Origin: Rhodanobacter fulvus Jip2
GTDB taxonomy: Bacteria; Pseudomonadota; Gammaproteobacteria; Xanthomonadales; Rhodanobacteraceae
DNA length: 64,000 nt
Assembly (NCBI RefSeq): GCF_000264315.1
Contig: NZ_AJXU01000028.1
Location: forward strand, 310,001-374,000
Direction: 5' to 3'
Positions 12,014 to 50,315 of this stretch are shown one piece after another (within the stretch, counting starts at the first letter, position 1; each line of letters begins with the position of its first letter). The position numbers and the translations under genes are program-made. Below the pieces are notes generated by a model. The model made no database searches, was not told the origin of the DNA, and saw only the letters and a program-made list of their open reading frames with translations.

Positions 12014-13921
12014 TCATTCCCGCAACGCGGCATCGCCCCAGGTAACCACCAACGGCAGGTCGCTGCTGCTGGCATCGTTGCGCGCGACGAGCTCGACGAT
12101 CTTCACGTTGGCGAGGTCGGCGGTCAGCGGTTGCGCCGCCTGCCCATAAGCCGCCGTCGCCTGCGCCAGCAGGTGGCCATCACCGAAAACCTGGAACACG
12201 ACCTTGTCTTTCAGGTTGCGGGTGGAATCATCCACGCCCACCTTTGCCTCGAAGTGGCTGAAGCCGGCGGCTTTCACTTCCATGCGCGAATTGGCCAGGA
12301 TGCCGATGCCGGAGGTGAAGACTGTTCCATCCACGGTCAACGCCTGGTCGTACGGTGTGGCATCGGCGCGGGCGCCGCCCCAGCCGCCGTAGCTCGGGCG
12401 CTCGCCACCATTGGTGGTGGCGCCCCACGGGTTGCTCATGCGATGGACGATCGGATCGGGCAAGGGTACGGCCACGCCATCGCGGGCGATGTTGATGGCG
12501 CCGGGTATTTCCGACAGGTACATGCCATCGGCAAGCTGCCGTTTTCCCTTCGCCTCGAATACGCGCGATTCGCGCGGCTGCAAGGTGAATGTCTGCTCGC
12601 CGCCCGTGAGCGTCATGGTCTTTTTCGACCACAGGTCGGTGAGCGCCACATCGCCCACCATCTTCAGCTGCGCGGGCGTGAGCGTGATCTCGGCGGGTCC
12701 CGAGCCGCGGTTGAGCAGCAGCACGGCCTTGGTGCCGGAATCGCTGAGCGTCTTGACGAAGATCTGCACGTCGTCCGAGTCGTAGGCCAGTACCGCCTGG
12801 TGGCCGCCGCGGTCCTGGTTGACCCGCACGATGTCCTTGTTTGACCAGATGCTCATCAGCGCCGGTGGCGCATTGCGCAGGTCGTAGCCGATGATCAGCG
12901 GGGCGTTGATCATGGCCCACAGCGAGAAATGCGTGCGCGCTTCGGTGAGGTGGTGCACGTCGAAATCGCCGTGGCCGACGAACAGCATGTCCGGGTCGTT
13001 CCAGTGCCCGGGGCCGGCGTACAGCGCGCGCGTCGAGGCGCTGTCGAAGGTGTGCAGCATGCGCCCCCACTGCGGCGTGATATCGCCGCTGGTACGCCAC
13101 AGGTTGCCCACGTCCTTGCCCCACGACCGCACGTCGGCGGCGCCCCAGGCGCAGATGGAATAGACGTAGTCGCCATCGGGATTGCTGGCGGCCAGGGCAT
13201 CGGCCACTTGCTGGTATAGCGCACGCACGGCCGGGATATCCGTGCGGTTGATGCTGGCCTGGTCAATCAGCGGCGGGTACACGTTGTACTTGTGCTGTTT
13301 CACCACAGGGCTGTCCGCCCCGTACACGTTGATGCCGCAGGCGTCGACCTTGATGTAGTCGAAGCCCCAATCGGCGAAATACAGTTTGATGTCCTGCTGC
13401 ACATGGCCACGCAGGCCGATCTGCCGTTCGGCGGTGGTGCCCTCGGGCAGGTTGGGCGAATGCAGGTCGTACGCCTGCGAGCAGGAATTGCCGCCGATGT
13501 CGGTGTAGATGCCGGCCTTCAGCCCCATGCGGTGCAGTTTGTCGGTGAAGGGACGGAAGCTGGATGTCTCGCTGCCGCCAACCTTCGCCGACGGGAAGAT
13601 CGCCGTGCGCACCTGCATGCGCCCGTCACTGGTGCGCCGCTTCAGCCACCAGCCGTCGTCGATGTTCACGTAGATGTAGCCCAGATCGCGCAGCCCGCTG
13701 TCGACCAGCACTTTCGCCGTGCCCATCACCTTGGCCTCGTCGACGTCGGTACGGAACGCGTTCCACGAATTCCAGCCCATCGGCGGCGTGGCGGCGCGCC
13801 CTGCCGTGGCGCCGGTCCAATGGCCTGCGGGAGCGAGTGGATCGGCGACGGGTTGAGCCGCCGTCGCGGACAGCGCGGTAACGGCAAACAGGGTGAAAGC
13901 GAGAAGCGTGGCCTTGAGCAT
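12014..13921 (-). CDS. alpha-galactosidase, GH27, with C-terminal NPCBM domain
   Basis: A 635-residue exported glycosidase that removes alpha-linked galactose. A Sec signal (about 1-22, ending T-A-A-Q) precedes a (beta/alpha)8 barrel opening P-P-M-G-W-N-S-W-N-A-F. The nucleophile is Asp193 in Y-I-K-V-D-A-C-G and the acid/base Asp280 in R-T-S-G-D-I, both as in GH27. After the barrel comes an all-beta domain, then an NPCBM-type carbohydrate-binding module (about 495-635; W-G-G-A-R-A-D, G-I-G-I-L-A-N-S, V-G-V-D-D-S-T). The frame runs upstream to 14431 without a stop, but the ATG at 13921 begins the signal peptide. No sugar transporter or regulator is adjacent. Confidence 0.92.
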   Translation of the reverse strand: MLKATLLAFTLFAVTALSATAAQPVADPLAPAGHWTGATAGRAATPPMGWNSWNAFRTDVDEAKVMGTAKVLVDSGLRDLGYIYVNIDDGWWLKRRTSDGRMQVRTAIFPSAKVGGSETSSFRPFTDKLHRMGLKAGIYTDIGGNSCSQAYDLHSPNLPEGTTAERQIGLRGHVQQDIKLYFADWGFDYIKVDACGINVYGADSPVVKQHKYNVYPPLIDQASINRTDIPAVRALYQQVADALAASNPDGDYVYSICAWGAADVRSWGKDVGNLWRTSGDITPQWGRMLHTFDSASTRALYAGPGHWNDPDMLFVGHGDFDVHHLTEARTHFSLWAMINAPLIIGYDLRNAPPALMSIWSNKDIVRVNQDRGGHQAVLAYDSDDVQIFVKTLSDSGTKAVLLLNRGSGPAEITLTPAQLKMVGDVALTDLWSKKTMTLTGGEQTFTLQPRESRVFEAKGKRQLADGMYLSEIPGAINIARDGVAVPLPDPIVHRMSNPWGATTNGGERPSYGGWGGARADATPYDQALTVDGTVFTSGIGILANSRMEVKAAGFSHFEAKVGVDDSTRNLKDKVVFQVFGDGHLLAQATAAYGQAAQPLTADLANVKIVELVARNDASSSDLPLVVTWGDAALRE

Positions 13922-14066
13922 GGGTCGTCTGTTTCCCTGATGGATTCGCGGCGAACGTTTGGGTTGTTTCATCAAACCTGGAGCAACGGATGATTGTACC
14001 CAGCCCTGCGGGATCAACCGGGATGGCGGTTGCAGATCGGCGCCGCCGACGTGAAGCAGCGCAACG

Positions 14067-14459
14067 CTAGTCCTCGTGCCGGCCTGTGTGCTCGCGATCG
14101 CGCGGGTAGTGATGCGCCAGCGCAAACGGCGGCAGCCAGTGTTCGCGGCGGATGGTCCAGTTCTCGTAGGTCGGTACCAGTTGATCGGGCGCATCCAGCG
14201 TCCCCAGGTGCACCTCGATCTCGTCGTCGAAGCGGGCGAAAACCGACGAGCCGCAGCGGGGGCAAAAGTGCCGCCCGGCGTAATCGTGCGTTTCGCCTTC
14301 GATGGCCACCGCGTCCTGTGGAAAGATCGCCGCCGCGTAGAAAAGCGCCCCATGGTGCTTGCGGCAATCGAGGCAGTGGCACAGCCCCACCCGGTAAGGT
14401 TGGCCCGTGGCGCGCAGGCGTACGTCGCCACACAGACAGCCGCCCGTGAATGCAGTCAT
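14067..14459 (-). CDS. GFA-family (glutathione-dependent formaldehyde-activating-like) protein
   Basis: A 130-residue zinc protein of the GFA/CENP-V fold. The metal-binding cysteines are visible: G-G-C-L-C-G near residue 8, C-H-C-L-D-C-R near 28-33 and F-C-P-R-C-G-S near 67. In most members these hold two zinc ions; only a few are proven to act on glutathione-formaldehyde adducts, so the substrate here is open. It begins M-T-A-F-T-G-G-C and is complete. It lies upstream of, and on the same strand as, the galactosidase with a 145-bp gap, and is divergent from the stator operon. Confidence 0.88.
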   Translation of the reverse strand: MTAFTGGCLCGDVRLRATGQPYRVGLCHCLDCRKHHGALFYAAAIFPQDAVAIEGETHDYAGRHFCPRCGSSVFARFDDEIEVHLGTLDAPDQLVPTYENWTIRREHWLPPFALAHHYPRDREHTGRHED

Positions 14460-14608
14460 GGCGCAACTCCTCTTCTTCGAATGCCGATGGACGGCGAGTA
14501 TCCGAAATTGCCGGTCGCTTCGCCGTACAGGCCGGTCACGCCCGATAACACAAGGTCAACCGCCGACAGCCCCGGCCGGGTTAAACTGCCCGATTTGCCC
14601 CGGAAAAC

Positions 14609-15259
14609 ATGGCCCAAGCAGCACTCCGTCCGCCGGTTCGCGGGCCCACCTTCATCCGCCTGCTGGCACGCCTGGCCGAAACCGATCTGGCACCCGCCCG
14701 CCCGTCGCTGCCCGACCGGCTGGGCCAATGGCTGGATTGGAAGCACGCGTTGGCGCTGGCTGCCGCGCTCGACGCCCGGCCGGCCGAGCCCGCGATCGCC
14801 GCCGTGGCGCCGGACGACCTGCACGCCGAGTGCGCGCGGGCACGCGAGGTGCTGACGGCGGCGGTCGAGGATGCCCCGCTGCTGGCGCCTGCGGCGCCCG
14901 CCGAAGCGGACTACGCCGCGTTCCGCCAGCTCTGCCTCAGCCGCCAGCGCGCCACGCAGGCCGCCGTGGGTCGCCTGCGCGGCAAGCTGCGCGACGCGCT
15001 CGCGGCGTCACCCGGGATGGGCCAGCTGGCCGAAGTGGACGCCGCGATGGAGGTGGCGATCACCCCGCGCGAGCACACCTTGCTGGCCAAGGTGCCCGAG
15101 CTGCTGGGCCAACGCTTCGAACGCTTGCGTACCGCGGCGGACACCTCAACCACCTGGCTCGACAGCTTCCGCCGCGACATGCGCAGCGTGTTGCTGGCCG
15201 AGCTGGATCTTCGTTTCCAACCGGTGGACGCGCTGCTCGCGGCGCTACGCACCTCCTGA
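14609..15259 (+). CDS. DUF3348 family protein, first gene of stator operon
   Basis: A 216-residue, Ala/Arg-rich helical protein with no signal or membrane helix. It reads as DUF3348: G-P-T-F-I-R-L-L-A-R-L near the start, L-G-Q-W-L-D-W-K-H-A-L-A-L, then R-Q-L-C-L-S-R-Q-R and a C-terminal F-R-R-D-M-R-S-V-L-L-A-E-L-D. Function is unknown. The ATG is preceded by a CCGGAAAA sequence as a weak ribosome site. Eleven bases separate it from the DUF802 gene, and the same four-gene order occurs in other proteobacteria, so it is probably a cytoplasmic partner of the motor-like complex. Confidence 0.82.
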   Translation: MAQAALRPPVRGPTFIRLLARLAETDLAPARPSLPDRLGQWLDWKHALALAAALDARPAEPAIAAVAPDDLHAECARAREVLTAAVEDAPLLAPAAPAEADYAAFRQLCLSRQRATQAAVGRLRGKLRDALAASPGMGQLAEVDAAMEVAITPREHTLLAKVPELLGQRFERLRTAADTSTTWLDSFRRDMRSVLLAELDLRFQPVDALLAALRTS

Positions 15260-15270
15260 CCCGGTACACC

Positions 15271-17367
15271 ATGTTCAAACGATTGCTTCTTCTTTCCGTG
15301 TTCACGCTGGGCCTCGCCGCCATCGGCTGGATCGTCATCGGCTACGTCGGCAACAACCCATTGGGCACGGCCATCGCCGTGCTGATCGGCGCCGGCTATC
15401 TCGCCGGCGCGTTCGAGCTGTTCCGCTACCGGCAGGCCACCGCCACGCTGCATCAGGCGGTGGATGAACTGACCGAGCCACCTACCGAGCTCGGCCCTTG
15501 GCTGGAACGCCTGCATCCCAACCTGCGCCACGCCGTGCGCCTGCGCGTGGAAGGCGAGCGCAGCGCGCTGCCGGCGCCGGCGATGACGCCGTACCTGGTC
15601 GGCCTGCTGGTGTTGCTGGGCATGCTCGGCACCCTGCTCGGCATGATGGCCACGCTGCGCGGCACCGGCACGGCGCTGGGCAGCGCCAGCGACCTGCAGG
15701 CGATCCGCGGCTCGCTGGCCGCGCCGGTCAACGGCCTGGCGTTCGCCTTCGGCACCTCCATCGCCGGCGTCGCCAGCTCGGCCATGCTCGGCCTGCTCTC
15801 GGCGCTGGTCCGCCGCGAGCGGCTGGAAACGGTGCAAGCGCTGGATGCCCGCATAGCCACCACCTTGCGCATCCACTCGCAGGCACACCAGCGCGAGGCC
15901 TCCTTCCGCCTGCTGCAACAACAGGCCGCCGCCATGCCCGCCCTGGTCGAGCGCCTGCAGGCGATGGCCGCGACGCTGGAGCAGCAAGGCGCCGCCGCCC
16001 ACGAGCGCCAGCACGCCGACCGCGAAGCTTTCCATCGCCATACCGAAGAGGCGTACACGCGACTGGCCCGCTCGGTCGAGCAGTCGCTGCAGACAAGCGT
16101 GGTCGACAGCGCGCGTACCGCCGCCAGCGTGTTGCAGCCGGTGGTCGAATCCACGCTGGCCAGCCTGGCCCGCGAGAGCACCGCCATCCAGGCCAGCGTG
16201 GGCGACGCCGTGCAGCGCCAGCTCGATGGCCTCACCACCGGTTTCGATACCACTGCGCGCACCGTCACCGGCATCTGGAACGACGCGCTCGCCCAGCACC
16301 GGCAGACCAACGAGGCCCATGCAAAGGATCTTGGCAACGCCCTCGCCCGCTTTGCCGACACCTTCGAGCAGCGCTCGTCCACCTTGCTGGACGGCGTCGC
16401 CACCCGCCTGGACGCCAGCGCCGACCGCGCGGCCGACGCCTGGCAAAACGCCCTGTCGAAACAGGACGCGGTCCACGCCGAACTGGCCGAAGGCAACCGA
16501 CAGGCACTGGCCGCCGCCAGCGAAACCTTCGAGTCGCACGCGGCCGCACTGGTGCAGGCGGTCGACCGTTCGCATGCGGAATTGCAGGCGGCGCTTGAGA
16601 GCCGTGACGGCGAACGCCTGGCCGCCTGGGCGCAGAAACTCGACGCCCTCAGCACCGAACTGGGCACTCGGTGGGAAGCGGCCGGCGACGCTACTGCCAG
16701 CCATCAACAAGCCATCTGCGACACGCTGGAACAAACCGCCGGCGCCATCGCCACGCAAACTGAAGCCGCCGCCAGCAAGACTCTCGCGGAAATCGCCCGC
16801 CTGGTCGAAGCAGCCTCCGAAGCGCCGCGCGTGGCCGCCGAAGTCGTCGGCGAGCTGCGCCAGAAACTCTCCGACAGCATGGTCCGCGACACCGCCATGC
16901 TGGAAGAGCGCAGCCGCCTGCTGGCCACGCTGGAAACCCTGCTCGACGCCGTCAACCACGCCTCCACCGAACAACGCAGCGCCGTCGACGCCCTGGTCAG
17001 CACCTCGGCCGATCTGCTCGACCGCGTGGGCACCCGCTTCGCCGCCCAGATCGAAACCGAAACCGGCAAGCTCGACACCGCCGCCGCACAAGTCACCGCC
17101 AGCGCCGTCGAAGTCGCCAGCCTGGGTGAAGCGTTCGGCGCCGGCGTGGCGCAATTCGGCCAGGCGAACGACGCGCTGATGGAACGCCTGCAACAGATCG
17201 CCGGCGCCCTCGACAACTCGCTCACGCGCAGCGACGAGCAACTCGCCTACTACGTGGCCCAGGCGAAGGAAGTGGTCGAGCTCAGCGTGCTCTCGCAACA
17301 ACAGATCATCGCCGACATGCAGCAGCTCGCCGACCAGCGTGCGCCGGGCAAGGCGGCGAAGGCATGA
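15271..17367 (+). CDS. DUF802 protein: MotA/TolQ/ZorA-like inner-membrane stator with long tail
   Basis: A 698-residue inner-membrane protein. Two hydrophobic helices lie at about 3-27 and 30-50, and two more (about 105-130, Y-L-V-G-L-L-V-L-L-G-M-L-G-T-L-L-G-M-M, and 150-185, F-A-F-G-T-S-I-A-G-V-A-S-S-A-M-L-G-L-L) have the small-residue pattern of the MotA/ExbB channel helices. From about 190 to 698 it is an Ala/Gln/Glu-rich, heptad-like helical tail without prolines in long stretches, much as in ZorA of Zorya defence systems. Its ATG (15271) follows the DUF3348 stop closely and its end overlaps the next ATG by four bases. The long frame upstream of 15271 is chance. Confidence 0.85.
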   Translation: MFKRLLLLSVFTLGLAAIGWIVIGYVGNNPLGTAIAVLIGAGYLAGAFELFRYRQATATLHQAVDELTEPPTELGPWLERLHPNLRHAVRLRVEGERSALPAPAMTPYLVGLLVLLGMLGTLLGMMATLRGTGTALGSASDLQAIRGSLAAPVNGLAFAFGTSIAGVASSAMLGLLSALVRRERLETVQALDARIATTLRIHSQAHQREASFRLLQQQAAAMPALVERLQAMAATLEQQGAAAHERQHADREAFHRHTEEAYTRLARSVEQSLQTSVVDSARTAASVLQPVVESTLASLARESTAIQASVGDAVQRQLDGLTTGFDTTARTVTGIWNDALAQHRQTNEAHAKDLGNALARFADTFEQRSSTLLDGVATRLDASADRAADAWQNALSKQDAVHAELAEGNRQALAAASETFESHAAALVQAVDRSHAELQAALESRDGERLAAWAQKLDALSTELGTRWEAAGDATASHQQAICDTLEQTAGAIATQTEAAASKTLAEIARLVEAASEAPRVAAEVVGELRQKLSDSMVRDTAMLEERSRLLATLETLLDAVNHASTEQRSAVDALVSTSADLLDRVGTRFAAQIETETGKLDTAAAQVTASAVEVASLGEAFGAGVAQFGQANDALMERLQQIAGALDNSLTRSDEQLAYYVAQAKEVVELSVLSQQQIIADMQQLADQRAPGKAAKA

Positions 17368-18029
17368 GCGACGACGTCGAAGCCGACGCCGAATCCACCG
17401 CCCCCATCTGGGCCTTCGGCGACCTGATGTCGGTGCTGCTGGGCGCGTTCGTGCTGATCCTGGTTGGCGTGATCGGCGTGCAGTTGCAGCTGTCGCACAA
17501 ACTTGAAGTCGCCGAGCAGCAACGCCAGGCCGAACTGCAACGCCGCACCACGCTGGAACAGGCGCTGGCCACGCCGCTGGCGCAAGGCCGCGTGACCCTG
17601 GTGAACGGCCGCATCGGCATCCGCGGCAACCTGCTGTTTGCACTCAACTCCGACCAGTTGCAGCCGGACGGCCGCCAGCTCATCCAGAGCCTCGCCACAC
17701 CGTTGGCGCAGTACCTGCAATCACGCGACGAATTGCTGATGGTCAGCGGCTTCACCGACGACCAGCCCGTGCACGGCGACAACCGCCAGTTTGCCGACAA
17801 CTGGGAGCTTTCCGCCCAGCGCGCCCTCACCGTCGCCCGCGCGCTGATCGCCGCCGGCGTACCCGCCAACGCCGTGTTCGCTGCCGCCTTCGGCGCGCAG
17901 CAACCGGTCAGCGCCAACACCGACGAAGCCGGCCGCGCAAAAAACCGCCGCGTGGAAATCGCCCCGATCCCCCGCTCCTCGGCCGCCAACGTCGCGCCGG
18001 AAGACGCCGATACCGGCCATGCCCGCTGA
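17364..18029 (+). CDS. OmpA/MotB/ZorB-like stator partner
   Basis: A 221-residue inner-membrane protein with one helix (about 14-36) and a periplasmic OmpA-type peptidoglycan-binding domain (about 85-205). The helix reads W-A-F-G-D-L-M-S-V-L-L-G-A-F-V-L, placing an Asp (residue 20) where MotB and ZorB have the proton-carrying Asp. The OmpA domain shows G-F-T-D-D, R-A-L-T-V-A-R-A-L, G-A-Q-Q-P and K-N-R-R-V-E-I. With the DUF802 protein it should form a proton-driven stator fixed to the cell wall. The start overlaps the previous stop (ATGA) and its end overlaps the following gene by 11 bases. Confidence 0.9.
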   Translation: MSDDVEADAESTAPIWAFGDLMSVLLGAFVLILVGVIGVQLQLSHKLEVAEQQRQAELQRRTTLEQALATPLAQGRVTLVNGRIGIRGNLLFALNSDQLQPDGRQLIQSLATPLAQYLQSRDELLMVSGFTDDQPVHGDNRQFADNWELSAQRALTVARALIAAGVPANAVFAAAFGAQQPVSANTDEAGRAKNRRVEIAPIPRSSAANVAPEDADTGHAR

Positions 18030-18540
18030 CACCACCTCGGCCATCCACGCGCAGCTGATTGCCGCCATGGAACAGCGCGCCGCCAACCTTGGCGGCGAAG
18101 CGCGCCGCGCCCTGGAAACGCGATTGGCCGAGCTGCGCGCAGCCGACACCGCCGCGCTCGACAAAACACCGCCCGCCCCGTCGCAGCCAGGCCTGCGCGA
18201 CCTCGTCGCGGATCTCGCCCGCGAACCCTCACCACAAACCGCTGCGTATCCGGACATCCCTGCCCTCGCCGATTTCCGCCAGCTCTGGTCCACCCTCCGC
18301 GCCGACAGCCAGCTGCAGCAGTCCGTCGCCCACACCGCCACCGACGCCGGCCCGCTCAACTCCACCGCGCTGGCCAGTCGCGCCATCGCACTCATGCGCG
18401 AACTGTCACCCGCCTACCTGCGCGCTTTTCTGGCCTACGTCGATGACCTCGCCTGGCTGGAGCAGATGGAGCACCCAGGCACCAGTGCAGGGTCTGTTAC
18501 CACCCGGAAGAGGCGCGCCCGACGCAAGCCTCGGGACTGA
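18019..18540 (+). CDS. DUF2894 family protein, last gene of stator operon
   Basis: A 173-residue soluble protein of the DUF2894 type. The N-terminal half is Ala/Arg-rich and helical (R-A-A-N-L-G-G-E-A-R-R-A-L-E-T-R-L), followed by a Pro-rich link and a C-terminal helical domain with F-R-Q-L-W-S-T-L-R and L-S-P-A-Y-L-R-A-F-L-A-Y-V-D-D-L-A-W-L-E, ending in a very basic tail (K-R-R-A-R-R-K). The function is unknown. It overlaps the OmpA-type gene, so translation is coupled. The basic tail could contact nucleic acid or acidic lipid; that is speculation. Confidence 0.82.
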   Translation: MPADTTSAIHAQLIAAMEQRAANLGGEARRALETRLAELRAADTAALDKTPPAPSQPGLRDLVADLAREPSPQTAAYPDIPALADFRQLWSTLRADSQLQQSVAHTATDAGPLNSTALASRAIALMRELSPAYLRAFLAYVDDLAWLEQMEHPGTSAGSVTTRKRRARRKPRD

Positions 18541-18578
18541 GCACCCGTCATCGACAGACCCGCCTGGCGTCGCTGAAT

Positions 18579-18600
18579 TTATACAGTTGCACTGTACAAT
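18579..18600 (+). promoter_or_regulatory. operator-like palindrome before the SnoaL-like gene
   Basis: TACAGT-TGC-ACTGTA (18582-18596) is a perfect inverted repeat, and the flanks continue the symmetry (ATTTA on the left, CAATT on the right, nine of eleven positions per arm). It lies 33 bases before the ATG at 18630 in an unusually AT-rich patch, so it fits an operator over the promoter. A MarR-type gene lies convergently just downstream and is the obvious but untested candidate binder. Confidence 0.5.
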
Positions 18601-18629
18601 TTGAACCAGCGAACAAACAGGAGCGTGCG

Positions 18630-19040
18630 ATGTCGTCCGATGCCATCAAGGCCGTGGTGCGACGGTTCAATGAAGAAGTGATCGCCAAGGGCGACCGTGC
18701 GTCGTTCGATGCGTTGATCCACCCGGATTTCGTCAACCGGTCGGCCCCAGCGGGTGCGCCGGATGGGCCGGAAAGCCTGTGGAACACGTTCGAGCACGTG
18801 CTGCGCCCGGCGCTGGGCGAGCTGCGCGTAACCATCCACGATCAGGTCGCCGAGGGCGACAAGGTCACCACGCGCAAGACCGTGAGCGGCACCCACGTCG
18901 GCACGCTGTTGGGCATGGAGGCGACTTGGCGGGCGGTCGCGATCGACGTGATCGACATTGTTCGTGTCGTCGACGGACGCTACGCCGAGCATTGGGGGTT
19001 GAACACGCTGGCGGCGGTACTGGCGCAGTTGAAAAACTGA
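18630..19040 (+). CDS. SnoaL-like / ester cyclase family protein
   Basis: A 136-residue soluble protein of the NTF2-like SnoaL fold. It shows the usual pattern V-V-R-R-F-N-E-E-V at the start, F-D-A-L-I-H-P-D-F-V-N, V-A-E-G-D-K-V-T-T-R with H-V-G-T-L, and a C-terminal I-D-I-V-R-V-V-D-G-R-Y-A-E-H-W. Family members include polyketide cyclases and many small enzymes of unknown substrate. A GGAG box is nine bases before the ATG. Its stop is five bases from the end of the convergent MarR gene. Confidence 0.87.
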   Translation: MSSDAIKAVVRRFNEEVIAKGDRASFDALIHPDFVNRSAPAGAPDGPESLWNTFEHVLRPALGELRVTIHDQVAEGDKVTTRKTVSGTHVGTLLGMEATWRAVAIDVIDIVRVVDGRYAEHWGLNTLAAVLAQLKN

Positions 19041-19045
19041 CCGGC

Positions 19046-19504
19046 TCAGTCGTCCGCGGCGGCGCTGATCCGGTTGAGCAGTTCGATCGATGCACGCAGC
19101 CGCTGCTGCTCCGCCGCCGAGAGCGTGGCTTCGACAAGCTGGCCGATCCGCGCGGCGCGGGCGTCGCGATCACGGCGTACCCGGGTGCGGCCCTTGCCGG
19201 ACAGCGACAACAACCAGCTGCGCCGATCATCCGGATCCGGTCTGCGCTCGATCAATCCATCCGCCACCAGTTGCGCCGCCGCGACACGCATCGACTGATG
19301 CGTCACATTGCGCCGTTGCGCCAGGGCCGCCACGTTCATCGCCCCCTCGCGCTCAAGCAGGCCAAGCACGTCGGATTGCGCGGATTTTTCGGTAGCCGTC
19401 CTTTTGCGAATCGCCCGCACGAACGTACCGACGGCGTGTCGCAGCTCCTCGGCCAGGGCCGCGGGATCGGTGGAGGGAGGGTTTTCAGTTTTTCGTGCGG
19501 CCAT
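19046..19504 (-). CDS. MarR-family transcriptional regulator
   Basis: A 152-residue winged-helix regulator. The DNA-binding part (about 45-115) shows A-Q-S-D-V-L-G-L-L-E-R-E-G, the recognition helix R-N-V-T-H-Q-S-M-R-V-A-A-A-Q-L and the wing R-R-P-D-P-D-D-R-R-S-W-L-L-S-L-S-G-K-G, which is the MarR signature. The ATG at 19504 starts the protein; the frame beyond it is not protein-like. It converges on the SnoaL-like gene and is divergent from the ThuA gene. Confidence 0.87.
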   Translation of the reverse strand: MAARKTENPPSTDPAALAEELRHAVGTFVRAIRKRTATEKSAQSDVLGLLEREGAMNVAALAQRRNVTHQSMRVAAAQLVADGLIERRPDPDDRRSWLLSLSGKGRTRVRRDRDARAARIGQLVEATLSAAEQQRLRASIELLNRISAAADD

Positions 19505-19621
19505 GGCTTGTCTGCGGTATTCCCTGACCCGGTACCGTAATGGACGTCGATACCCGGCGTCCTCTGTTCCGGCGCATGACGGTGAAGTGCATCCGGCGCC
19601 AAAGCAAGTCACACTCGACGC

Positions 19622-20398
19622 ATGAAAACCATCCCCGCGCTGCTCATCACCCTGCTACTGGCCATGGCCCTGCTGCCCGGCTGCACATCACCGGCCACCG
19701 ACGCGCTCGGCAAGACAAGCGCCAGCGCGACGCCCGCGGAAACCCCGCACATCCTGGTGTTCACCCGCACAGCCGGCTACCACCACGAGTCGATTCCCAC
19801 CGGCGTGCAGACGCTGCGCGAACTGGGGCAAGCGGAGGGCATCGAAGTGACGCAAAGCGATGACCCGTCCCTGTTCAACGACGCCAGCCTGGCCCGCTTC
19901 GATGCGGTGGTGTTTCTCAGCACCACCGGTGATGTGCTCGACGATACCCAGCAGGCGGCGTTCGAGCGCTACATCGGCAAGGGCGGCGGTTACATGGGCG
20001 TGCACGCCGCGGCTGACACCGAGTACGACTGGCCCTGGTACGGCCGCCTCGTCGGCGCCTGGTTCCATAGCCATCCCAAGGGGCTGCAGACCACCCTGGT
20101 GCGGTTCGAGGGCGACGAAGCCGCGCTGGCACCTGACTGGCAAACCACCGACGAGCTGTACAACTACCGCAGCAACCCGCGCGCCGACGTCAACGTGATC
20201 GCCACCGTGGACGAAAGCCGTTACCAGGGCGGCACGATGGGCGCCGACCACCCGATCGCCTGGTGCTCGAACCGCCTGGGTGGACGTGCCTGGTACACCG
20301 GCCTCGGGCACACCGACGCGCAATACGCCGATGCCGTCTTCCGCGCGCACCTGTTGCGTGGCTTGCGCTACGCGATCGGCCGCGCGAACGCCTGCTGA
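19622..20398 (+). CDS. ThuA-domain lipoprotein
   Basis: A 258-residue exported lipoprotein. The signal peptide ends in the lipobox L-P-G-C (Cys at 20). The rest is a ThuA-like, class I glutamine-amidotransferase-type fold: I-L-V-F-T-R-T-A-G-Y-H-H-E-S-I-P, then F-D-A-V-V-F-L-S-T-T-G-D-V-L, G-G-G-Y-M-G-V-H-A-A-A-D-T, and P-I-A-W plus W-Y-T-G-L-G-H-T near the end. ThuA proteins are linked to trehalose and other sugar use; the true reaction is unknown. It precedes, in the same direction, a PQQ-type sugar dehydrogenase, which supports a periplasmic sugar role. Confidence 0.88.
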   Translation: MKTIPALLITLLLAMALLPGCTSPATDALGKTSASATPAETPHILVFTRTAGYHHESIPTGVQTLRELGQAEGIEVTQSDDPSLFNDASLARFDAVVFLSTTGDVLDDTQQAAFERYIGKGGGYMGVHAAADTEYDWPWYGRLVGAWFHSHPKGLQTTLVRFEGDEAALAPDWQTTDELYNYRSNPRADVNVIATVDESRYQGGTMGADHPIAWCSNRLGGRAWYTGLGHTDAQYADAVFRAHLLRGLRYAIGRANAC

Positions 20399-33903: not shown

Positions 33904-35406
33904 ATGGACATCACCTCATCCCTGCCCGACCCGCACATCTGCGAACAGGCCCGGCTCAGCCGCGACGCGCGTTTCGACGGGCTGTTTTTCACTGCCGTCA
34001 GCAGCACCGGCATCTATTGCCGACCGGTATGCCCGGCGCCCGTGCCGAAGCGGGCGAACGTGCGCTATTACGCGAATGCAGCCGCGGCCGAAGCGGCCGG
34101 GTTCCGTCCCTGTCTGCGTTGCCGGCCGGAGCTTTCGCCGGGCAACGATCAATGGCAGCGCGGCGACCACGTTGTGGCGCGTGCGCTGAAGCTGATCGAA
34201 AGCGGCGCGCTGGAGGAAAGCTCGCTGCCGCAACTGGCCACCCACGTCGGCGTCGGTGCGCGTCAATTGCGGCGGCTGTTCGTGGAGCGCGTCGGTGCGC
34301 CGCCGATCAGCGTGCACACCACGCGGCGGTTGTTGTTCGCGAAGCAATTGCTGACGGAAACCGCGCTGCCGGTAACCGAGGTGGCGTTGGCGTCGGGTTT
34401 CCGCAGCCTGCGCCGCTTCAACGCCGCGTTCGCCCAGGCGAACCGCATCGCGCCACGCGAACTGCGCCGCCACCCACGCGCGGCCGCCGGCGACGCGCTG
34501 GTGCTGCGGCTGGGCTACCGGCCACCGTACGCGTTCGGTGAGCTGCTGGCGTTCCTGCGCACGCGCGCCATGCCCGGCGTGGAGCGCGTGGATGACGACA
34601 GCTATGCGCGCGTGTTCGGCCCGGCTGACGCGCCGGGCTGGCTGCGGCTCAGTGCGTGGCCGGGCGAGCATGCGCTGCGCTTGCAACTGCATTGCCCGCA
34701 ATCGAGCCAGTTGCTTGGCGTGGTGACCACGCTGCGGCGGATGTTCGACCTGGACGCGAACCCGCAAGTCATCGCCGATACGCTGCGTGACGACGCCATC
34801 CTCGGCCCGCTGCTGGCACGCCGGCCAGGCCTGCGCCTGCCCGGCGGCTGGGATGGTTTCGAGATTGCGGTGCGCGCGATCCTGGGTCAGCAGATCAGCG
34901 TGGCGGCGGCGCGCACGCTGGCCACACGCATCGTGCAGCGCTGGGGCCAGCCCCTGGCGGAAGCGCCGATGCCGGGGTTGGAGCGATTGTTCCCCACGCC
35001 GGAAGTGCTGGCGCAGGCGGAGCTGCGCGAAGTCGGCCTCACCACCGCGCGCGCCGCCACCGTGCGCGGCATGGCGCAGGCCTTGCTGGACGGGCGCGTG
35101 GACTTTCGTGCGGATCAGTCGCTGGACGAATTCGTGGCCCGCTGGGTTGCCCTGCCCGGCATCGGCGAATGGACGGCGCACTACATGGCCATGCGCGCAC
35201 TGAGCGAACCGGACGCGTTCCCTGCCGCCGACCTGATCCTGCGCCGCGCCGCCACCACCGACCCGACCCCGCTGAGCACGAAAGCGCTCAGCCAGCGCGC
35301 CGAGGCGTGGCGACCCTGGCGCGCGTACACCGTGATCCACCTGTGGCGCGGCACGACGGATGCGCCGCCCGCGCTGCGTTCGAAGAAATCGGAGAAAACC
35401 CCATGA
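33904..35406 (+). CDS. alkA: Ada-like regulator domain fused to AlkA DNA glycosylase
   Basis: A 500-residue repair protein. Residues about 10-80 are the Ada zinc domain that in Ada accepts methyl groups from phosphotriesters (Cys39, Cys43, Cys70, Cys73). An AraC-type double helix-turn-helix follows (about 90-185; [16 protein letters not shown]). The rest is AlkA: N-terminal beta part, then [10 protein letters not shown], the hairpin L-P-G-I-G-E-W-T near 417-424 and the catalytic Asp443 in P-A-A-D-L. It excises alkylated bases and probably senses damage to induce itself. The stop overlaps the ogt ATG by four bases. Confidence 0.94.
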
Positions 35407-45293: not shown

Positions 45294-45517
45294 GCGCGCT
45301 CTCCGTGGTCCCGACAGGTTGACATGATGGTGCGCCCGGCCGGTTCGACGCCGAAAGCGCACAACGACTATAGAGCTTTGCGAGTAGATCGACGCGGCCT
45401 GTAGACTCGGGAAATGGCGCCCGTTTTCGCGACTCATGCCTTCCGTCCGCGGAAGCGCGTGGCGATGCGTGCGCTGCGCGACCGGTGCTGCCGGCGTATT
45501 CCCCGAACGGTGGCCCG

Positions 45518-48412
45518 ATGCCTTACGACTCCGCTGCACTCGCCATGCTCAGCCTGCCCTTTCTGGCCAGCGTGGTCGTGCTCATGGTGCGTGGGCGGCA
45601 GTGGGCAACATGGCTGATGATCGCCACCGCGGCGGCGTGCCTGCTGCTGGCGGTGGGCATCTATCCGGCGATGGATGGCGGCCACGCGCTGCGCCACGTC
45701 ATCCATTGGGTGCCGTCGCTGGGACTGGATCTGGTGCTGCGCGTGGACGGCTTCAGCTGGCTGTTCCTGATGCTGATCTGCGGCATCGGTCTGCTGGTGG
45801 GCGTGTATGCCCGCTACTACATGCCGCCGGACGATCCGCTGGACCGCTTCTGCGCGCTGTTGCTGGCGTTCATGGGCTCGATGCTGGGCATCGTGATGTC
45901 CGGCAACGTGATCCAGCTGGTGTTTTTCTGGGAGCTGACCAGCATCTTCTCGTTCCTGCTGATCGGCTACTGGAACCAGGGTGCGTCGGCGCGCGAGGGT
46001 GCGCGCATGGCGTTGATCGTCACCGCCGGTGGCGGCTTGTGCCTGTTCGCGGGAATGATGCTGCTGGGGCACATCGTGGGCAGCTATGACCTGGATGTGA
46101 TCCTGGCGGCCGGCGAGCGGGTGCGCGCCGATGCGTTGTACACACCGATGCTGGTGCTGGTGCTGCTGGGTGCATTGACCAAGAGCGCGCAGTTCCCGTT
46201 CCATTTCTGGCTGCCGCAGGCGATGTCGGCGCCGACGCCGGTGTCAGCGTTCCTCCATTCGGCCACCATGGTCAAGGCGGGTGTGTTCCTGCTGCTGCGC
46301 TTCTGGCCGGTGCTGTCGGGTACCGACGCCTGGTTCTGGCTAGTGGGCGGCACCGGCCTGCTGACCCTGCTGCTGGGCGCCACCGCGGCCGTGTTCCAGC
46401 AGGATCTGAAAGCGGTGCTGGCCTATTCGACGATCAGCCATCTCGGCCTCATCACCATGCTGATCGGCCTGGGCAGCACGCTGGGCGCGGTGGCGGCGAT
46501 CTTCCACATCGTCAACCACGCGACGTTCAAGGCCTCGCTGTTCATGGCCGCCGGCGCGGTGGATCACGAGGCCGGCACGCGCGACTTGCGGCGGCTGGGC
46601 GGCTTGCGTCATTTCATGCCGATCACGGCCACGCTGGCGGTGATCGCCAGCGCCGCGATGGCTGGCGTGCCGTTGCTCAACGGCTTCCTGTCCAAGGAAA
46701 TGTTCTTCGCGGTGGCGCTGACCACCCATCGCGGCCCCGCGGTAGACATGGCCGCCGCCGCGATCGCCGTGCTGGCCAGCGCTTTCAGCGTGGTTTATTC
46801 ACTGCGCTTCGCCGTGGGCGTGTTCTTCGGTCCCGCGCGCGACGATTACCCCCGCCAGCCCCACGAGCCGCCGCGCTGGATGCGCCTGCCGATCGGCCTG
46901 CTGGCGCTGGCCTGCGTGCTGGTGGGCATGCTGCCGGCGCGGGTGATCGGGCCGCCGCTGCGGGCGGCCGCGTATTCAGTGCTGGGCGAGGACACACCCA
47001 CGTTCAGCCTGGCGGTGTGGCATGGGCTGACCCCACCGCTGTTCATGAGCGCGATCGCGCTGGTGGCCGGATGCGTCGTCTATGTGGTGCTGCGCGGTTA
47101 TTTCGCGGGGCGTGAAACGCTGCCGCTGCTCGGCCGGTTCAGCGGCCGGCGGATGTTCGAGTGGGTGCTGACGCTGCTCACCGCCACGTTGCCGGCGGCA
47201 TTGGAGGGTGCGTTCCCCAGCCGCCGGCTGCAACCGCAATTGCTGTTGATCGTGCTGGCCGCGTCGCTGGCGGCGGGCACGGCGATGTGGGGTTCGTCGC
47301 TGCCGCTGTCGTTGCATGGGTCCGGTGTCGACCCCGCGTTTGCACTGCTGTGGCTGCTCGGTGGCGCCTGCGCGGTGGGCGCCGCGACGCAGGCGAAATT
47401 CCATCGACTCGCCGCGCTGCTGCTCACCGGCGGCGCCGGCCTGGTGTCGTGCATCAGTTTCGTGTGGTTGTCGGCGCCGGATCTGGCGGCGACCCAGCTG
47501 CTGGTCGAGGTGGTCACCGCGATCGTGATCCTGCTCGGCCTGCGCTGGCTGCCCAAGCGCATCAGCGGCATGGCGCCGGATACGCGCCGTGCCCGCCTGC
47601 GCCGCCACCGCGACATGGTGATTGCCGCCGGCGTGGGGTTGGGGCTGGCGACGTTGGCCTATGCGGCCATGCTGCATCCGGTGGCGGATTCGATCTCGCA
47701 CTTTTTCCTGGAGCGCGCGTACACCGAGGGCGGCGGCCACAACGTGGTCAACGTGATCCTGGTCGATTTCCGCGGCTTCGACACCATGGGCGAAATCAGC
47801 GTGCTGGCGATCGTGGCGCTGACGGTGTTCGCCCTGCTGCGCCGCTTCCGTCCGGCGATCGAAAGCGTGGACGCGCCCGCACAGCAACGGTTGCAGGCGG
47901 CTTTCGAGGCTTCCGACAACGGTGCCACCACGTCGGTGGTGGCCGATTACCTGCGCATCCCGGGGTTGATCGTGCAGCTGATGGCACCGGTGATCGTGCT
48001 GTTCGGCCTGCATCTGTTCCTGCGCGGACACGACCTGCCCGGTGGCGGATTTGCCGCCGGCATCACCGTGTCGGTGGCGCTGGTGCTGCTGTACATGGCG
48101 CGCGGCGCGCGCTGGGTGGAGGTGCGCCTGCGGGTGGCGCCGTTGCGCTGGATCGGCGCCGGTCTGCTGCTGGCGGTGAGCACGGGCCTGGGCTCGATCG
48201 CGTTCGGCTACCCGTTCCTCACCTCGCACTCGCGCCACGCCGAGGTGCCGCTGCTGGGCGAACTGCCGCTGGCCACGGCGATGCTGTTCGACCTGGGCGT
48301 GTTCTGCGTGGTGGTGGGCGCCACCTCGTTGATGCTGGTGGCACTGGCGCACCAGTCGCTGCGGCGGCCGCGGGTGCTGGAAATGGCTGCTGAAAGCGGG
48401 GAGGAGCGCTGA
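45518..48412 (+). CDS. mrpA: Mrp-type Na+/H+ antiporter subunit A fused to subunit B domain
   Basis: A 964-residue inner-membrane protein, the largest subunit of the multi-part cation/proton antiporter related to complex I. About 20 hydrophobic helices; the proton-channel core has L-V-F-F-W-E-L-T-S-I-F-S-F-L-L-I-G, the T-K-S-A-Q-F-P-F-H-F-W-L-P-Q-A-M segment and L-A-Y-S-T-I-S-H-L-G. From about 810 on the sequence is MrpB-like (G-H-D-L-P-G-G-G-F-A-A-G-I). This A-B fusion defines the group 2 (Pha-type) layout. The ATG at 45518 follows a GGTGG site. First gene of six. Confidence 0.94.
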   Translation: MPYDSAALAMLSLPFLASVVVLMVRGRQWATWLMIATAAACLLLAVGIYPAMDGGHALRHVIHWVPSLGLDLVLRVDGFSWLFLMLICGIGLLVGVYARYYMPPDDPLDRFCALLLAFMGSMLGIVMSGNVIQLVFFWELTSIFSFLLIGYWNQGASAREGARMALIVTAGGGLCLFAGMMLLGHIVGSYDLDVILAAGERVRADALYTPMLVLVLLGALTKSAQFPFHFWLPQAMSAPTPVSAFLHSATMVKAGVFLLLRFWPVLSGTDAWFWLVGGTGLLTLLLGATAAVFQQDLKAVLAYSTISHLGLITMLIGLGSTLGAVAAIFHIVNHATFKASLFMAAGAVDHEAGTRDLRRLGGLRHFMPITATLAVIASAAMAGVPLLNGFLSKEMFFAVALTTHRGPAVDMAAAAIAVLASAFSVVYSLRFAVGVFFGPARDDYPRQPHEPPRWMRLPIGLLALACVLVGMLPARVIGPPLRAAAYSVLGEDTPTFSLAVWHGLTPPLFMSAIALVAGCVVYVVLRGYFAGRETLPLLGRFSGRRMFEWVLTLLTATLPAALEGAFPSRRLQPQLLLIVLAASLAAGTAMWGSSLPLSLHGSGVDPAFALLWLLGGACAVGAATQAKFHRLAALLLTGGAGLVSCISFVWLSAPDLAATQLLVEVVTAIVILLGLRWLPKRISGMAPDTRRARLRRHRDMVIAAGVGLGLATLAYAAMLHPVADSISHFFLERAYTEGGGHNVVNVILVDFRGFDTMGEISVLAIVALTVFALLRRFRPAIESVDAPAQQRLQAAFEASDNGATTSVVADYLRIPGLIVQLMAPVIVLFGLHLFLRGHDLPGGGFAAGITVSVALVLLYMARGARWVEVRLRVAPLRWIGAGLLLAVSTGLGSIAFGYPFLTSHSRHAEVPLLGELPLATAMLFDLGVFCVVVGATSLMLVALAHQSLRRPRVLEMAAESGEER

Positions 48413-48750
48413 TGGAGCTGGTACTGGCGCTGGCAATCGGTGTGCTTGCGGCCTCGGGCGTGTGGCTGCTGCTGCGCCCGCGCACGTTCCAGGTGATCAT
48501 CGGCCTCACCCTGATTTCCTACGCGGTGAACCTGTTCATCTTCTGCATCGGCGGCTTGCGCACGGGTGCCGACCCGGTGTTGCGCGAGGGCGCCGACATC
48601 GCGCAATACACCGATCCGCTGCCACAGGCGCTGGTGCTGACGGCGATCGTGATCAGCTTTGCCACCACCGCGTTGTTCCTGGTGGTGCTGCTGGCCTCGC
48701 GCGGCCTCACCGGCAACGACCACGTCGACGGCAAGGACGGCACGCCATGA
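48412..48750 (+). CDS. mrpC: Mrp antiporter subunit C (NuoK-like)
   Basis: A 112-residue, three-helix inner-membrane protein homologous to NuoK. It begins M-E-L-V-L-A-L-A-I-G and carries the typical R-P-R-T-F-Q-V-I-I-G-L-T-L-I-S-Y-A-V-N-L, D-P-L-P-Q-A-L-V-L-T-A-I-V-I-S-F-A. Its ATG shares one base with the mrpA stop and its stop overlaps the mrpD ATG by four bases. Confidence 0.94.
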   Translation: MELVLALAIGVLAASGVWLLLRPRTFQVIIGLTLISYAVNLFIFCIGGLRTGADPVLREGADIAQYTDPLPQALVLTAIVISFATTALFLVVLLASRGLTGNDHVDGKDGTP

Positions 48751-50315
48751 GCGCGCATCTGTTGGTGTTGCCGATCGTGCTGCCGCTGCTGGTGGCCGGG
48801 CTGCAACTATTGCTGGGGGAGCGGCGACGACGGCTTGTGGCCACGTTGAGCGTGGCCTCCTGCGTGGCGCTGGTGTTGCTGGCCGCCGCGCTGCTGATGG
48901 GCGTGAGTGGCGCATCAGCCGGCGACGGCCTGACGGCGGTCTACCGTATCGGCGACTGGCCGGCGCGCTTCGGCATCGTGCTGGTGGCCGACCGGCTGTC
49001 GGTGCTGATGCTGCTGCTTACGGCGGTGCTGGCGCTGGCCCTGCTGCCGTGTGCGCTGGACCGCTGGCAACAGCCCGGCGGCCCGGTGCAGCCGATGTTC
49101 CAGTTCCTGCTGATGGGCTTGAACGGCACCTTCCTCACCGGCGACCTGTTCAATCTGTTCGTGTTCTTCGAGGTGCTGCTGGCGGCCACGTATGGCCTGG
49201 CGCTGCATCGGCCGGGTGCGCGTCGGGTCAGCGCCGGCTTGCACTACATCGCGGTCAACCTGCTTGCCTCGATGCTGTTCCTGGTGGGCGTCAGCCTGAT
49301 CTTCGGGGTCACCGGCACGCTCAACATGGCGGCGCTGGCCCAACTGATTCCCACCGTACCGGACAACACGCGCGCCTTGCTGCATGCCGGCGCCGCGATC
49401 CTGGGCGTGGCCTTCCTGGTGAAGGCGGCGATGTGGCCGCTGGGGTTCTGGCTGCCGCGCACCTATGCCGCGGCGACGTCGCCGGTGGCGGCCATGTTCG
49501 CGATCATGACCAAGGTGGGCATCTACGTGCTGCTGCGGTTGAGCCTGCTGCTGTTCGGCAGCGGCGCGGGCCCGGCCTCGGCCGATTTTGGCGACACCTG
49601 GCTGTTGTGGGGCGGCATGGCGACCGTGGTGGTCGGGGTGGTCGGCATGCTGGGCGCGCGCGACCTGGGCAAGCTGGCCGGCTACAACGTGCTCATTTCC
49701 TCGGGCACCCTGCTCGGCGCGATCGGCCTGCAGCATCCGGCGGTCACCGCCGGTGCGCTGGCTTACCTGGTGATCTCCACCCTGGCGATTGCCGCGTTCT
49801 TCCTGCTGGCCGGCATGCTGGCGCCGGACGACGAAACCGAGGCGACAGCCTTGCTGGAACCGTACGACCCGACCGGTGAGGCGCTGTACGCGGACGAAGA
49901 CGAGCACCGCGCCACGCTGCCGGCGCCGGTGGCACTGCTGGGCATGTGTTTCCTGGTCTGCGCGCTGGTGCTGGCCGGGTTGCCGCCGTTGTCCGGCTTC
50001 CTGGCCAAATTCGCCCTGCTGGCGCCGATGCTGGAAACCGGCGCGGGACGCGGTGCGACAGCTTTGTTCACGCTGGTAGTGGTGGCGGGTTTCTGCACGG
50101 TGATCGCGATGTGCCGCACCGGCATCCAGATCTTCTGGGCCGATGAGGATTGGGCCTTCCCTCCCATTCGCCTGGGTGAAGCCGTGTCGGTGCTGCTCCT
50201 GCTGGGATCCTGCCTGGCCTTGAGCGTCTGGGCCGACGCGCCGCTGCGCTACCTGGCGGCCACCGCCGAGCAGTTGCACGCGCCGGCCCATTACATCCGC
50301 GCGGTGTTCCCGTGA
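48747..50315 (+). CDS. mrpD: Mrp antiporter subunit D
   Basis: A 522-residue inner-membrane proton-channel subunit with about 14 helices, homologous to NuoM/N. Visible family segments are G-D-L-F-N-L-F-V-F-F-E-V-L-L, the essential Lys in F-L-V-K-A-A-M-W-P-L-G-F-W-L-P, and Y-N-V-L-I-S-S-G-T. A charged loop of about 35 residues (D-D-E-T-E-A, Y-A-D-E-D-E-H-R) sits between late helices, as in Pha-type MrpD. It overlaps its neighbours by four bases on both sides. Confidence 0.95.
   Translation: MSAHLLVLPIVLPLLVAGLQLLLGERRRRLVATLSVASCVALVLLAAALLMGVSGASAGDGLTAVYRIGDWPARFGIVLVADRLSVLMLLLTAVLALALLPCALDRWQQPGGPVQPMFQFLLMGLNGTFLTGDLFNLFVFFEVLLAATYGLALHRPGARRVSAGLHYIAVNLLASMLFLVGVSLIFGVTGTLNMAALAQLIPTVPDNTRALLHAGAAILGVAFLVKAAMWPLGFWLPRTYAAATSPVAAMFAIMTKVGIYVLLRLSLLLFGSGAGPASADFGDTWLLWGGMATVVVGVVGMLGARDLGKLAGYNVLISSGTLLGAIGLQHPAVTAGALAYLVISTLAIAAFFLLAGMLAPDDETEATALLEPYDPTGEALYADEDEHRATLPAPVALLGMCFLVCALVLAGLPPLSGFLAKFALLAPMLETGAGRGATALFTLVVVAGFCTVIAMCRTGIQIFWADEDWAFPPIRLGEAVSVLLLLGSCLALSVWADAPLRYLAATAEQLHAPAHYIRAVFP

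What the first reader, a model, noticed from the sequence alone, without database searches (positions are those of the whole stretch)
14609..18540. ZorAB/MotAB-like proton-driven stator operon with two unassigned partners
Seen: a MotA/ExbB-like four-helix protein with a tail of about 500 residues (DUF802), and an OmpA-domain protein whose single helix carries an Asp where MotB and ZorB have the proton-binding Asp, overlapping by four bases. They are flanked in one operon by DUF3348 and DUF2894 proteins. Known: ZorA has exactly a MotA-like head with a long helical tail, and ZorB a MotB-like helix plus OmpA domain, in Zorya anti-phage systems. Inference: this is a stator-type motor using its tail to signal to the two soluble partners, with a role (defence, envelope or motility) not yet assigned. 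No ZorC, ZorD or ZorE is present.
Basis: partly seen in the sequence, partly recalled or inferred. Interest (0 to 1): 0.75.

Follow-up and report, generated by a model that had tools for sequence, protein, structure and literature searches.

The report
Zorya type III phage-defence operon
The four genes are a complete copy of Zorya type III, an anti-phage membrane motor system published in 2021, so the operon is real but its role was not unassigned; how its two small partner proteins work is still open.

Summary
Window 14609-18540 encodes DUF3348 (216 aa), a 698-aa ZorA-like protein with two DUF802 repeats, a 221-aa ZorB-like OmpA protein with membrane Asp20, and DUF2894 (173 aa). 'Role not yet assigned' is wrong: all four match PADLOC's Zorya type III models (E 7e-73, 0, 2e-110, 5e-47), a type defined in 2021 and shown to reduce phage plating in E. 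coli (PMC8565338, passages). Added here: same gene order in 40 of 40 family loci I chose to fetch; in 398 Pseudomonadota genomes DUF802 and DUF3348 pass cut-off in the same 19, DUF2894 in those plus one borderline fragment; 15 of 45 genomes of the genus have it; one Rhodanobacter lineage is rejected (p-AU 1.9e-5). Most of the ZorA tail repeats every 11/3 residues and its distal segment 506-585 is nearly as conserved as the pore. Against a defence island: no clear excess of defence genes nearby. Verdict: known kind; how this Zorya acts without a recognisable nuclease is open.

The parts
14609..15259 (+). DUF3348 protein (ZorF in the 2021 paper's text; 'ZorG3' in PADLOC-DB v2), 216 aa, no membrane stretch, predicted all helical
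   Evidence: Pfam PF11828 E 1.2e-63; PADLOC PDLC00658 E 6.6e-73; AlphaFold2 pLDDT 86, pTM 0.81
15271..17367 (+). ZorA type III: four membrane helices then a ~500-residue tail, 698 aa
   Evidence: PADLOC ZorA3 PDLC00650 1140.6 bits, E 0; hydropathy
15631..15633 (+). ZorA Thr121 in membrane helix 3, candidate ring residue facing the ZorB Asp
   Evidence: Thr in 79 of 79 ZorA; aligns with the Thr of VIGTFMG in one ZorA1 (L193)
15754..15759 (+). ZorA Thr162-Ser163 in membrane helix 4
   Evidence: invariant in 79 of 79; aligns with Thr-Ser of one ZorA1
16231..16389 (+). DUF802 repeat 1 (ZorA 321-373)
   Evidence: PF05650 70.9 bits
16396..16554 (+). DUF802 repeat 2 (ZorA 376-428), 55 residues downstream of repeat 1
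   Evidence: PF05650 54.3 bits
16786..17025 (+). conserved distal tail segment of ZorA (506-585), candidate docking site
   Evidence: mean consensus frequency 0.91 in 79 ZorA, against at most 0.73 for 80-residue windows of the coil before it
17221..17310 (+). second conserved distal segment of ZorA (651-680)
   Evidence: mean consensus frequency 0.91
17364..18029 (+). ZorB type III: N-terminal membrane helix plus OmpA-like domain, 221 aa
   Evidence: PADLOC ZorB3 PDLC00651 E 1.7e-110; OmpA E 2.4e-18; NCBIfam NF006547 'hypothetical protein' 365.8 vs cut-off 194 bits
17421..17423 (+). ZorB Asp20, ion-binding Asp
   Evidence: Asp in 79 of 79 relatives
18019..18540 (+). DUF2894 protein (ZorG in the 2021 paper's text; 'ZorF3' in PADLOC-DB v2), 173 aa, no membrane stretch, predicted helical, basic C-terminus
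   Evidence: Pfam PF11445 E 1e-35; PADLOC PDLC00652 E 4.9e-47; pLDDT 75.8, pTM 0.35
18463..18537 (+). basic C-terminal 25 residues of DUF2894 (net +6)
   Evidence: net charge of the last 25 residues at least +5 in 68 of 79 relatives

Best explanation
A complete Zorya type III anti-phage operon. ZorA and ZorB form an inner-membrane ion-driven motor anchored to peptidoglycan by the ZorB OmpA domain; ion flow past ZorB Asp20 and the ZorA Thr/Ser ring turns or strains the ZorA ring, and a long coiled tail carries this into the cytoplasm. The conserved end of the tail most likely engages the DUF3348 and DUF2894 proteins, which replace ZorC/D/E of types I and II as sensor, regulator or effector, to stop phage growth. 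Shown here: family membership, gene order, invariant ion-path residues, tail periodicity, conserved tail end, close co-occurrence. Shown in print for a relative: phage protection. Inferred: 5:2 assembly, rotation, docking at the tail end, and what the two small proteins do.
For: All four proteins hit PADLOC type III models, far above types I and II (ZorA3 1140.6 bits vs ZorA1 44.9). Published definition and plaque assays of a Stenotrophomonas relative. Same order in 40 of 40 chosen family loci and in 73 of 73 fully callable named loci, of 80. DUF802 and DUF3348 above cut-off in the same 19 of 398 genomes, DUF2894 in those 19 plus one borderline fragment. Asp20, Thr121, Thr162, Ser163 invariant in 79 of 79. 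Tail period 3.665 residues, mean power 20.6 over 79 ZorA; none of 2000 shuffles of the window's tail reached its value. Distal tail conservation 0.91 against 0.64-0.73 in the coil. Patchy presence: 68 of 197 in the family, 15 of 45 in the genus; one Rhodanobacter clade rejected, p-AU 1.9e-5.
Against: No defence island: 0 of 36 other window genes scanned hit PADLOC at 1e-10, and 147 flanking genes from other loci gave about as few PADLOC families as 133 control genes. No phage assay on this operon. A PDB profile search with ZorA found only generic coiled coils, and NCBIfam's ZorA model scored 34 bits against a cut-off of 100. The 11/3 period does not hold in the conserved distal part, where it is about 3.58. 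5:2 assembly and docking were not modelled. DUF2894 also rings above cut-off in one control genome outside the phylum, Corynebacterium glutamicum (not followed up). In B. cenocepacia only the first one or two genes of the Zorya III operon changed on phage infection, and the authors did not list it among the transcriptionally active systems.
Confidence: 0.82

Rival explanations
1. A housekeeping envelope or motility stator (MotAB, TolQR or AglRS-like) that blocks phage only when overexpressed in E. coli.
For: Flanks are mostly metabolic or regulatory genes without clear excess of defence families; the published test used plasmid expression in a foreign host.
Against: Patchy within genus and family; no neighbour family in more than 18 of 80 loci, and that one (LysR-like) at scattered positions; tree not following genera; MotA_ExbB and MotB models below their cut-offs. 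Patchiness does not by itself prove defence.
Confidence: 0.13
2. The motor itself is the effector: DUF3348 and DUF2894 only gate ZorAB, and on infection an opened ion path collapses the membrane potential (abortive infection). This is a sub-case of the best explanation, so the odds overlap.
For: No nuclease or helicase family matched either small protein; the 2021 paper proposes ZorF and ZorG as regulators of ZorAB and cites the older proton-channel idea.
Against: In type II the effector is the ZorE nickase (abstract of PMC11890865); no direct data for type III.
Confidence: 0.25
3. A type I or II Zorya that has lost ZorC/D/E.
For: ZorA and ZorB match type I and II models weakly.
Against: For ZorA the type III model scores about 25 times the bits of the best type I model, and the DUF3348/DUF2894 pair goes with DUF802 in 19 of 19 genomes.
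Confidence: 0.02

Closest known systems
Zorya type III (ZorA, ZorB, DUF3348, DUF2894; PADLOC 2021, PMC8565338)
   Same: All four proteins, order and compactness; these models score above every other PADLOC model
   Different: Nothing found beyond sequence divergence; the window's DUF2894 (173 aa) is shorter than the median of 79 relatives (217 aa)
Zorya type I and II (PMC11890865)
   Same: MotA-like head with Thr/Ser ring, long helical tail, ZorB Asp and OmpA domain; whole tails of two ZorA1 have a period of 3.635-3.645 residues, near but not at 11/3
   Different: No ZorC/D/E found; the far end of the tail is conserved in type III (0.91) but only 0.24-0.29 identical between the two ZorA1 compared, whose heads are 0.46-0.58 identical at best (two sequences only)
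Flagellar MotAB stator
   Same: Membrane Asp, OmpA domain, MotA-like helices
   Different: MotA_ExbB below Pfam cut-off, MotB/MotD models below NCBIfam cut-offs; 500-residue tail

Membership tests
Zorya type III | ZorA of type III | tested here: met
   PDLC00650/00649 1140.6/1100.1 bits
Zorya type III | ZorB of type III | tested here: met
   PDLC00651 E 1.7e-110
Zorya type III | DUF3348 protein in the operon | tested here: met
   PF11828 E 1.2e-63; PDLC00658 E 6.6e-73
Zorya type III | DUF2894 protein in the operon | tested here: met
   PF11445 E 1e-35; PDLC00652 E 4.9e-47
Zorya type III | four adjacent co-directional genes, DUF genes flanking zorAB | tested here: met
   window; relatives
Zorya type III | ion-path Asp in ZorB and Thr/Ser in ZorA | tested here: met
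Zorya type III | ZorA5B2 assembly and ion-driven rotation | not testable with these tools
   no complex prediction offered; the paper section seen reports structures for types I and II
Zorya type III | anti-phage activity of this operon | not testable with these tools
   reported for a Stenotrophomonas relative
Zorya type I or II | ZorC and ZorD, or ZorE, beside zorAB | tested here: not met
   0 of 36 other window genes scanned match any PADLOC model at 1e-10 (gene list not complete)
Zorya type I or II | NCBIfam ZorA model NF033915 above cut-off | tested here: not met
   34 vs 100 bits
Flagellar MotAB | MotA and MotB family models above cut-off | tested here: not met
   MotA_ExbB 16.4 vs 22.9 bits; best flagellar model listed, MotD, 97 vs 283 bits (25 of 41 matches shown)

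The most novel reading that the evidence does not exclude
Zorya type III is a nuclease-free branch of Zorya: the conserved far end of the ZorA tail (residues 506-585 and 651-680) is a dedicated coupling for the DUF3348 helical protein and the basic-tailed DUF2894 protein, which transmit motor motion to an effector step unlike the helicase and nickase parts of types I and II.
Probability: 0.4. Interest if true: 0.6.

Novelty: already known. Interest (0 to 1): 0.25.

Why it matters
The locus is ordinary as a member of a published defence type. Type III is the least described Zorya in what I could see: of five held papers that name it I saw passages of four and found neither a type III structure nor a mechanism for its two partners there; the fifth (PMC13064858) was seen in the listing only, and the 2025 Nature paper on Zorya is not held. 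The conserved tail end and the close co-occurrence of the three DUF families give a concrete site and pair to test.

Tried and rejected
Fold search: DUF3348 (pLDDT 86) had no Foldseek match at E 0.001 or better in PDB; the second look gave helical-bundle rows such as vinculin tail, Z 9.3, rmsd 4.9, 134 aligned, over residues 64-216, which for helical bundles may be only a common arrangement. DUF2894 is a poor model (pTM 0.35) and its four listed Foldseek matches had E 4.4 or worse. Profile searches of PDB sequences gave best E 1.1 and 0.26 for the two families. Profile comparison of the two DUF families: probability 5%.

Defence-island idea: PADLOC at 1e-15 over 147 flanking genes matched 12 models: mad2 in 3 genes, AriA 2, mad3 2, and one each for DpdJ, MzaA, AbiLi, JukA (three models), PD-T4-2_B, mad8 and a second AriA model. 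Over 133 control genes from the window's own contig it matched 17 models under nine names: mad3 in 2 genes, and QatA, PDC-S20, E1-E2, PifA, pVip, Csa3, PD-Lambda-2_B and LeoBC. The tool does not give the number of distinct genes hit. Counting only E below 1e-40, flanks have four names (DpdJ, MzaA, AbiLi, JukA) and the control one (QatA): too few to call an enrichment, but in that direction. The flank set was 148 picked of 269 (of 311, 42 dropped by length), minus one that was a DUF3348 gene itself. The control comes from one genome only.

Empty-site test: failed. The downstream ThuA-like gene occurs in 4 of 45 genus genomes; in the two of these that lack Zorya III (G126, G155) the 19.5 kb fetched around it matched nothing else of window 1-40000 under my length cut-offs.

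Tail insertions as multiples of 11 residues: only 3 of 12 larger events, so no length rule is claimed. Dropped before counts: two of 80 ZorA with a wrongly picked start; DUF3348 not callable in six of 80 loci, ZorB and DUF2894 in one (contig end), by my start rule.

Clade test: the Rhodanobacter set, with the window counted in by me, was tested after I had seen the tree, on a quick tree without bootstraps.

Promoter scan of 14380-18700 found no sigma-70-type site. DUF3348 against 50,697 phage records: no match. ZorA against 72,556 plasmid records at 1e-20: 27 records, mostly large Burkholderiaceae replicons.

Full report
What is there. The stretch 14609-18540 holds four co-directional genes: DUF3348 (14609-15259), a 698-aa ZorA-like protein with two DUF802 repeats (15271-17367), a 221-aa ZorB-like OmpA protein (17364-18029) and DUF2894 (18019-18540). 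Pfam's MotA_ExbB falls below its cut-off (16.4 vs 22.9 bits), so 'MotA-like' rests on the more specific models. A 910-aa open frame on the other strand over ZorA is most likely a by-product of high G+C (inference).

What it is. PADLOC-DB assigns all four to Zorya type III: ZorG3 for DUF3348 (E 6.6e-73), ZorA3 (1140.6 bits), ZorB3 (E 1.7e-110), ZorF3 for DUF2894 (E 4.9e-47); types I and II score far lower. NCBIfam's ZorA model is not reached (34 vs 100 bits) and its best ZorB match is a 'hypothetical protein' family. The PADLOC paper (PMC8565338, passages seen) reports 6,401 such gene pairs (its text says 'zorBC' there, later ZorA, ZorB, ZorF and ZorG), names them Zorya type III, and shows that one from Stenotrophomonas nitritireducens lowers plating of at least one phage and protects liquid cultures against one phage at low multiplicity in E. 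coli BL21-AI. A 2025 structural paper (PMC11890865; [quoted passage not shown] the section seen reports ZorA5B2 structures of types I and II. The paper's text and the database name the small proteins in opposite ways.

How general. Of 197 genomes of the window's family 68 have DUF802; of 45 of its genus 15 have this ZorB at 1e-50. In one sample of 398 Pseudomonadota genomes DUF3348 and DUF802 each exceed the Pfam cut-off in the same 19 genomes, and DUF2894 in those 19 plus one genome by a fragment with a stop, right at the cut-off. Below the cut-off there was one further DUF3348 and two further DUF2894 matches. Among 14 control genomes DUF2894 rings above cut-off in Corynebacterium glutamicum, which I did not follow up. 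In the sample the families thus behave like one module, but DUF2894 may have relatives outside it. In 40 family loci of my choosing all four genes stand in the same order; in 80 named loci all four could be called in 73, all in that order. Among 874 neighbour genes from a simple caller the commonest family (LysR-like by its letters) is in 18 of 80 loci, at most 6 at one position. The tree of ZorA ends plus ZorB (78 rows, quick, no bootstraps) does not follow genera: the window sits with one Rhodanobacter and with Frateuria and Dyella rows, while six of the eight other Rhodanobacter rows form a separate group. One Rhodanobacter lineage is rejected (p-AU 1.9e-5; the set was named after the tree was seen). 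This fits transfer, but duplication and loss are not excluded.

How it likely works. ZorA Thr121, Thr162 and Ser163 are invariant in 79 of 79 ZorA and the Asp in 79 of 79 ZorB; the 2025 paper describes such an Asp packed against Ser/Thr in types I and II. From residue 216 on the tail has a hydrophobic period of 3.665 residues, which is 11/3, with almost no signal at 7/2 (79 ZorA). In the window this holds for about 301-520; the stretch before is nearer 3.70, and the conserved end (466-685) nearer 3.58, with little signal at 11/3. The two DUF802 repeats start 55 residues apart, five times eleven. An 11-residue coil is expected to be right-handed (general knowledge). Two ZorA1 tails show 3.635 and 3.645. 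In 79 ZorA the third and fourth membrane helices (0.93) and two segments near the end of the tail, 506-585 and 651-680 (0.91 each), are conserved, while the coil between is not (0.64-0.73) and takes 10 of 16 length changes. ZorA is exactly 698 aa in 44 of 79. Between two ZorA1 the tail end is not conserved, but two sequences prove little. I infer that the type III tail end docks the two small proteins. DUF3348 is predicted as helical with good confidence and DUF2894 as helices of unsure arrangement; neither gave a significant fold match, which is weak evidence only. DUF2894 ends in a basic stretch (net +5 or more in 68 of 79), which could touch nucleic acid or membrane; untested.

Against. 0 of 36 other window genes scanned match PADLOC at 1e-10 (the list came from a simple caller plus hand-picked frames and is not complete), and flanking genes elsewhere show no clear excess of defence families over control (strong hits four names against one). 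So island context gives little support; the case for defence rests on the published assay and on patchy presence. In Burkholderia cenocepacia only the first one or two genes of the Zorya III operon changed during phage infection, and it is not among the systems that the authors call transcriptionally active (PMC12584637, passage seen).

Verdict. Already known system; interest low for the locus, moderate for the open mechanism of type III.

Noticed in passing
PADLOC-DB labels against PMC8565338 text: ZorF and ZorG are swapped between the 2021 paper's text (DUF3348 = ZorF) and PADLOC-DB v2 model names (DUF3348 = ZorG3), which may confuse annotation.
   Followed up: partly
ZorA of 79 loci (window 15271-17367): ZorA is exactly 698 aa in 44 of 79 sequences, from Xanthomonadales and Burkholderiales, although the coil tolerates large insertions; the tail seems to have a preferred length.
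   Followed up: partly
G153:C11:80710-81393: One relative shows five DUF802 matches in one ZorA frame instead of the usual one or two.
   Followed up: no
Corynebacterium glutamicum control genome: DUF2894 rings above the Pfam cut-off in a control genome outside the phylum; possible relative without ZorAB, or a chance match.
   Followed up: no
window 12014-13981 and 18630-20398: Flanks of the operon are an alpha-galactosidase with NPCBM domain, a GFA protein, a SnoaL-like and a ThuA-like protein; among 45 genus genomes only G189 has both the first and the last at 94-96% identity.
   Followed up: partly
window 33904-35403 and 45485-50312: A protein with Ada and AlkA domains, and Mrp-type cation/proton antiporter subunits, one frame joining several subunit domains.
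   Followed up: no
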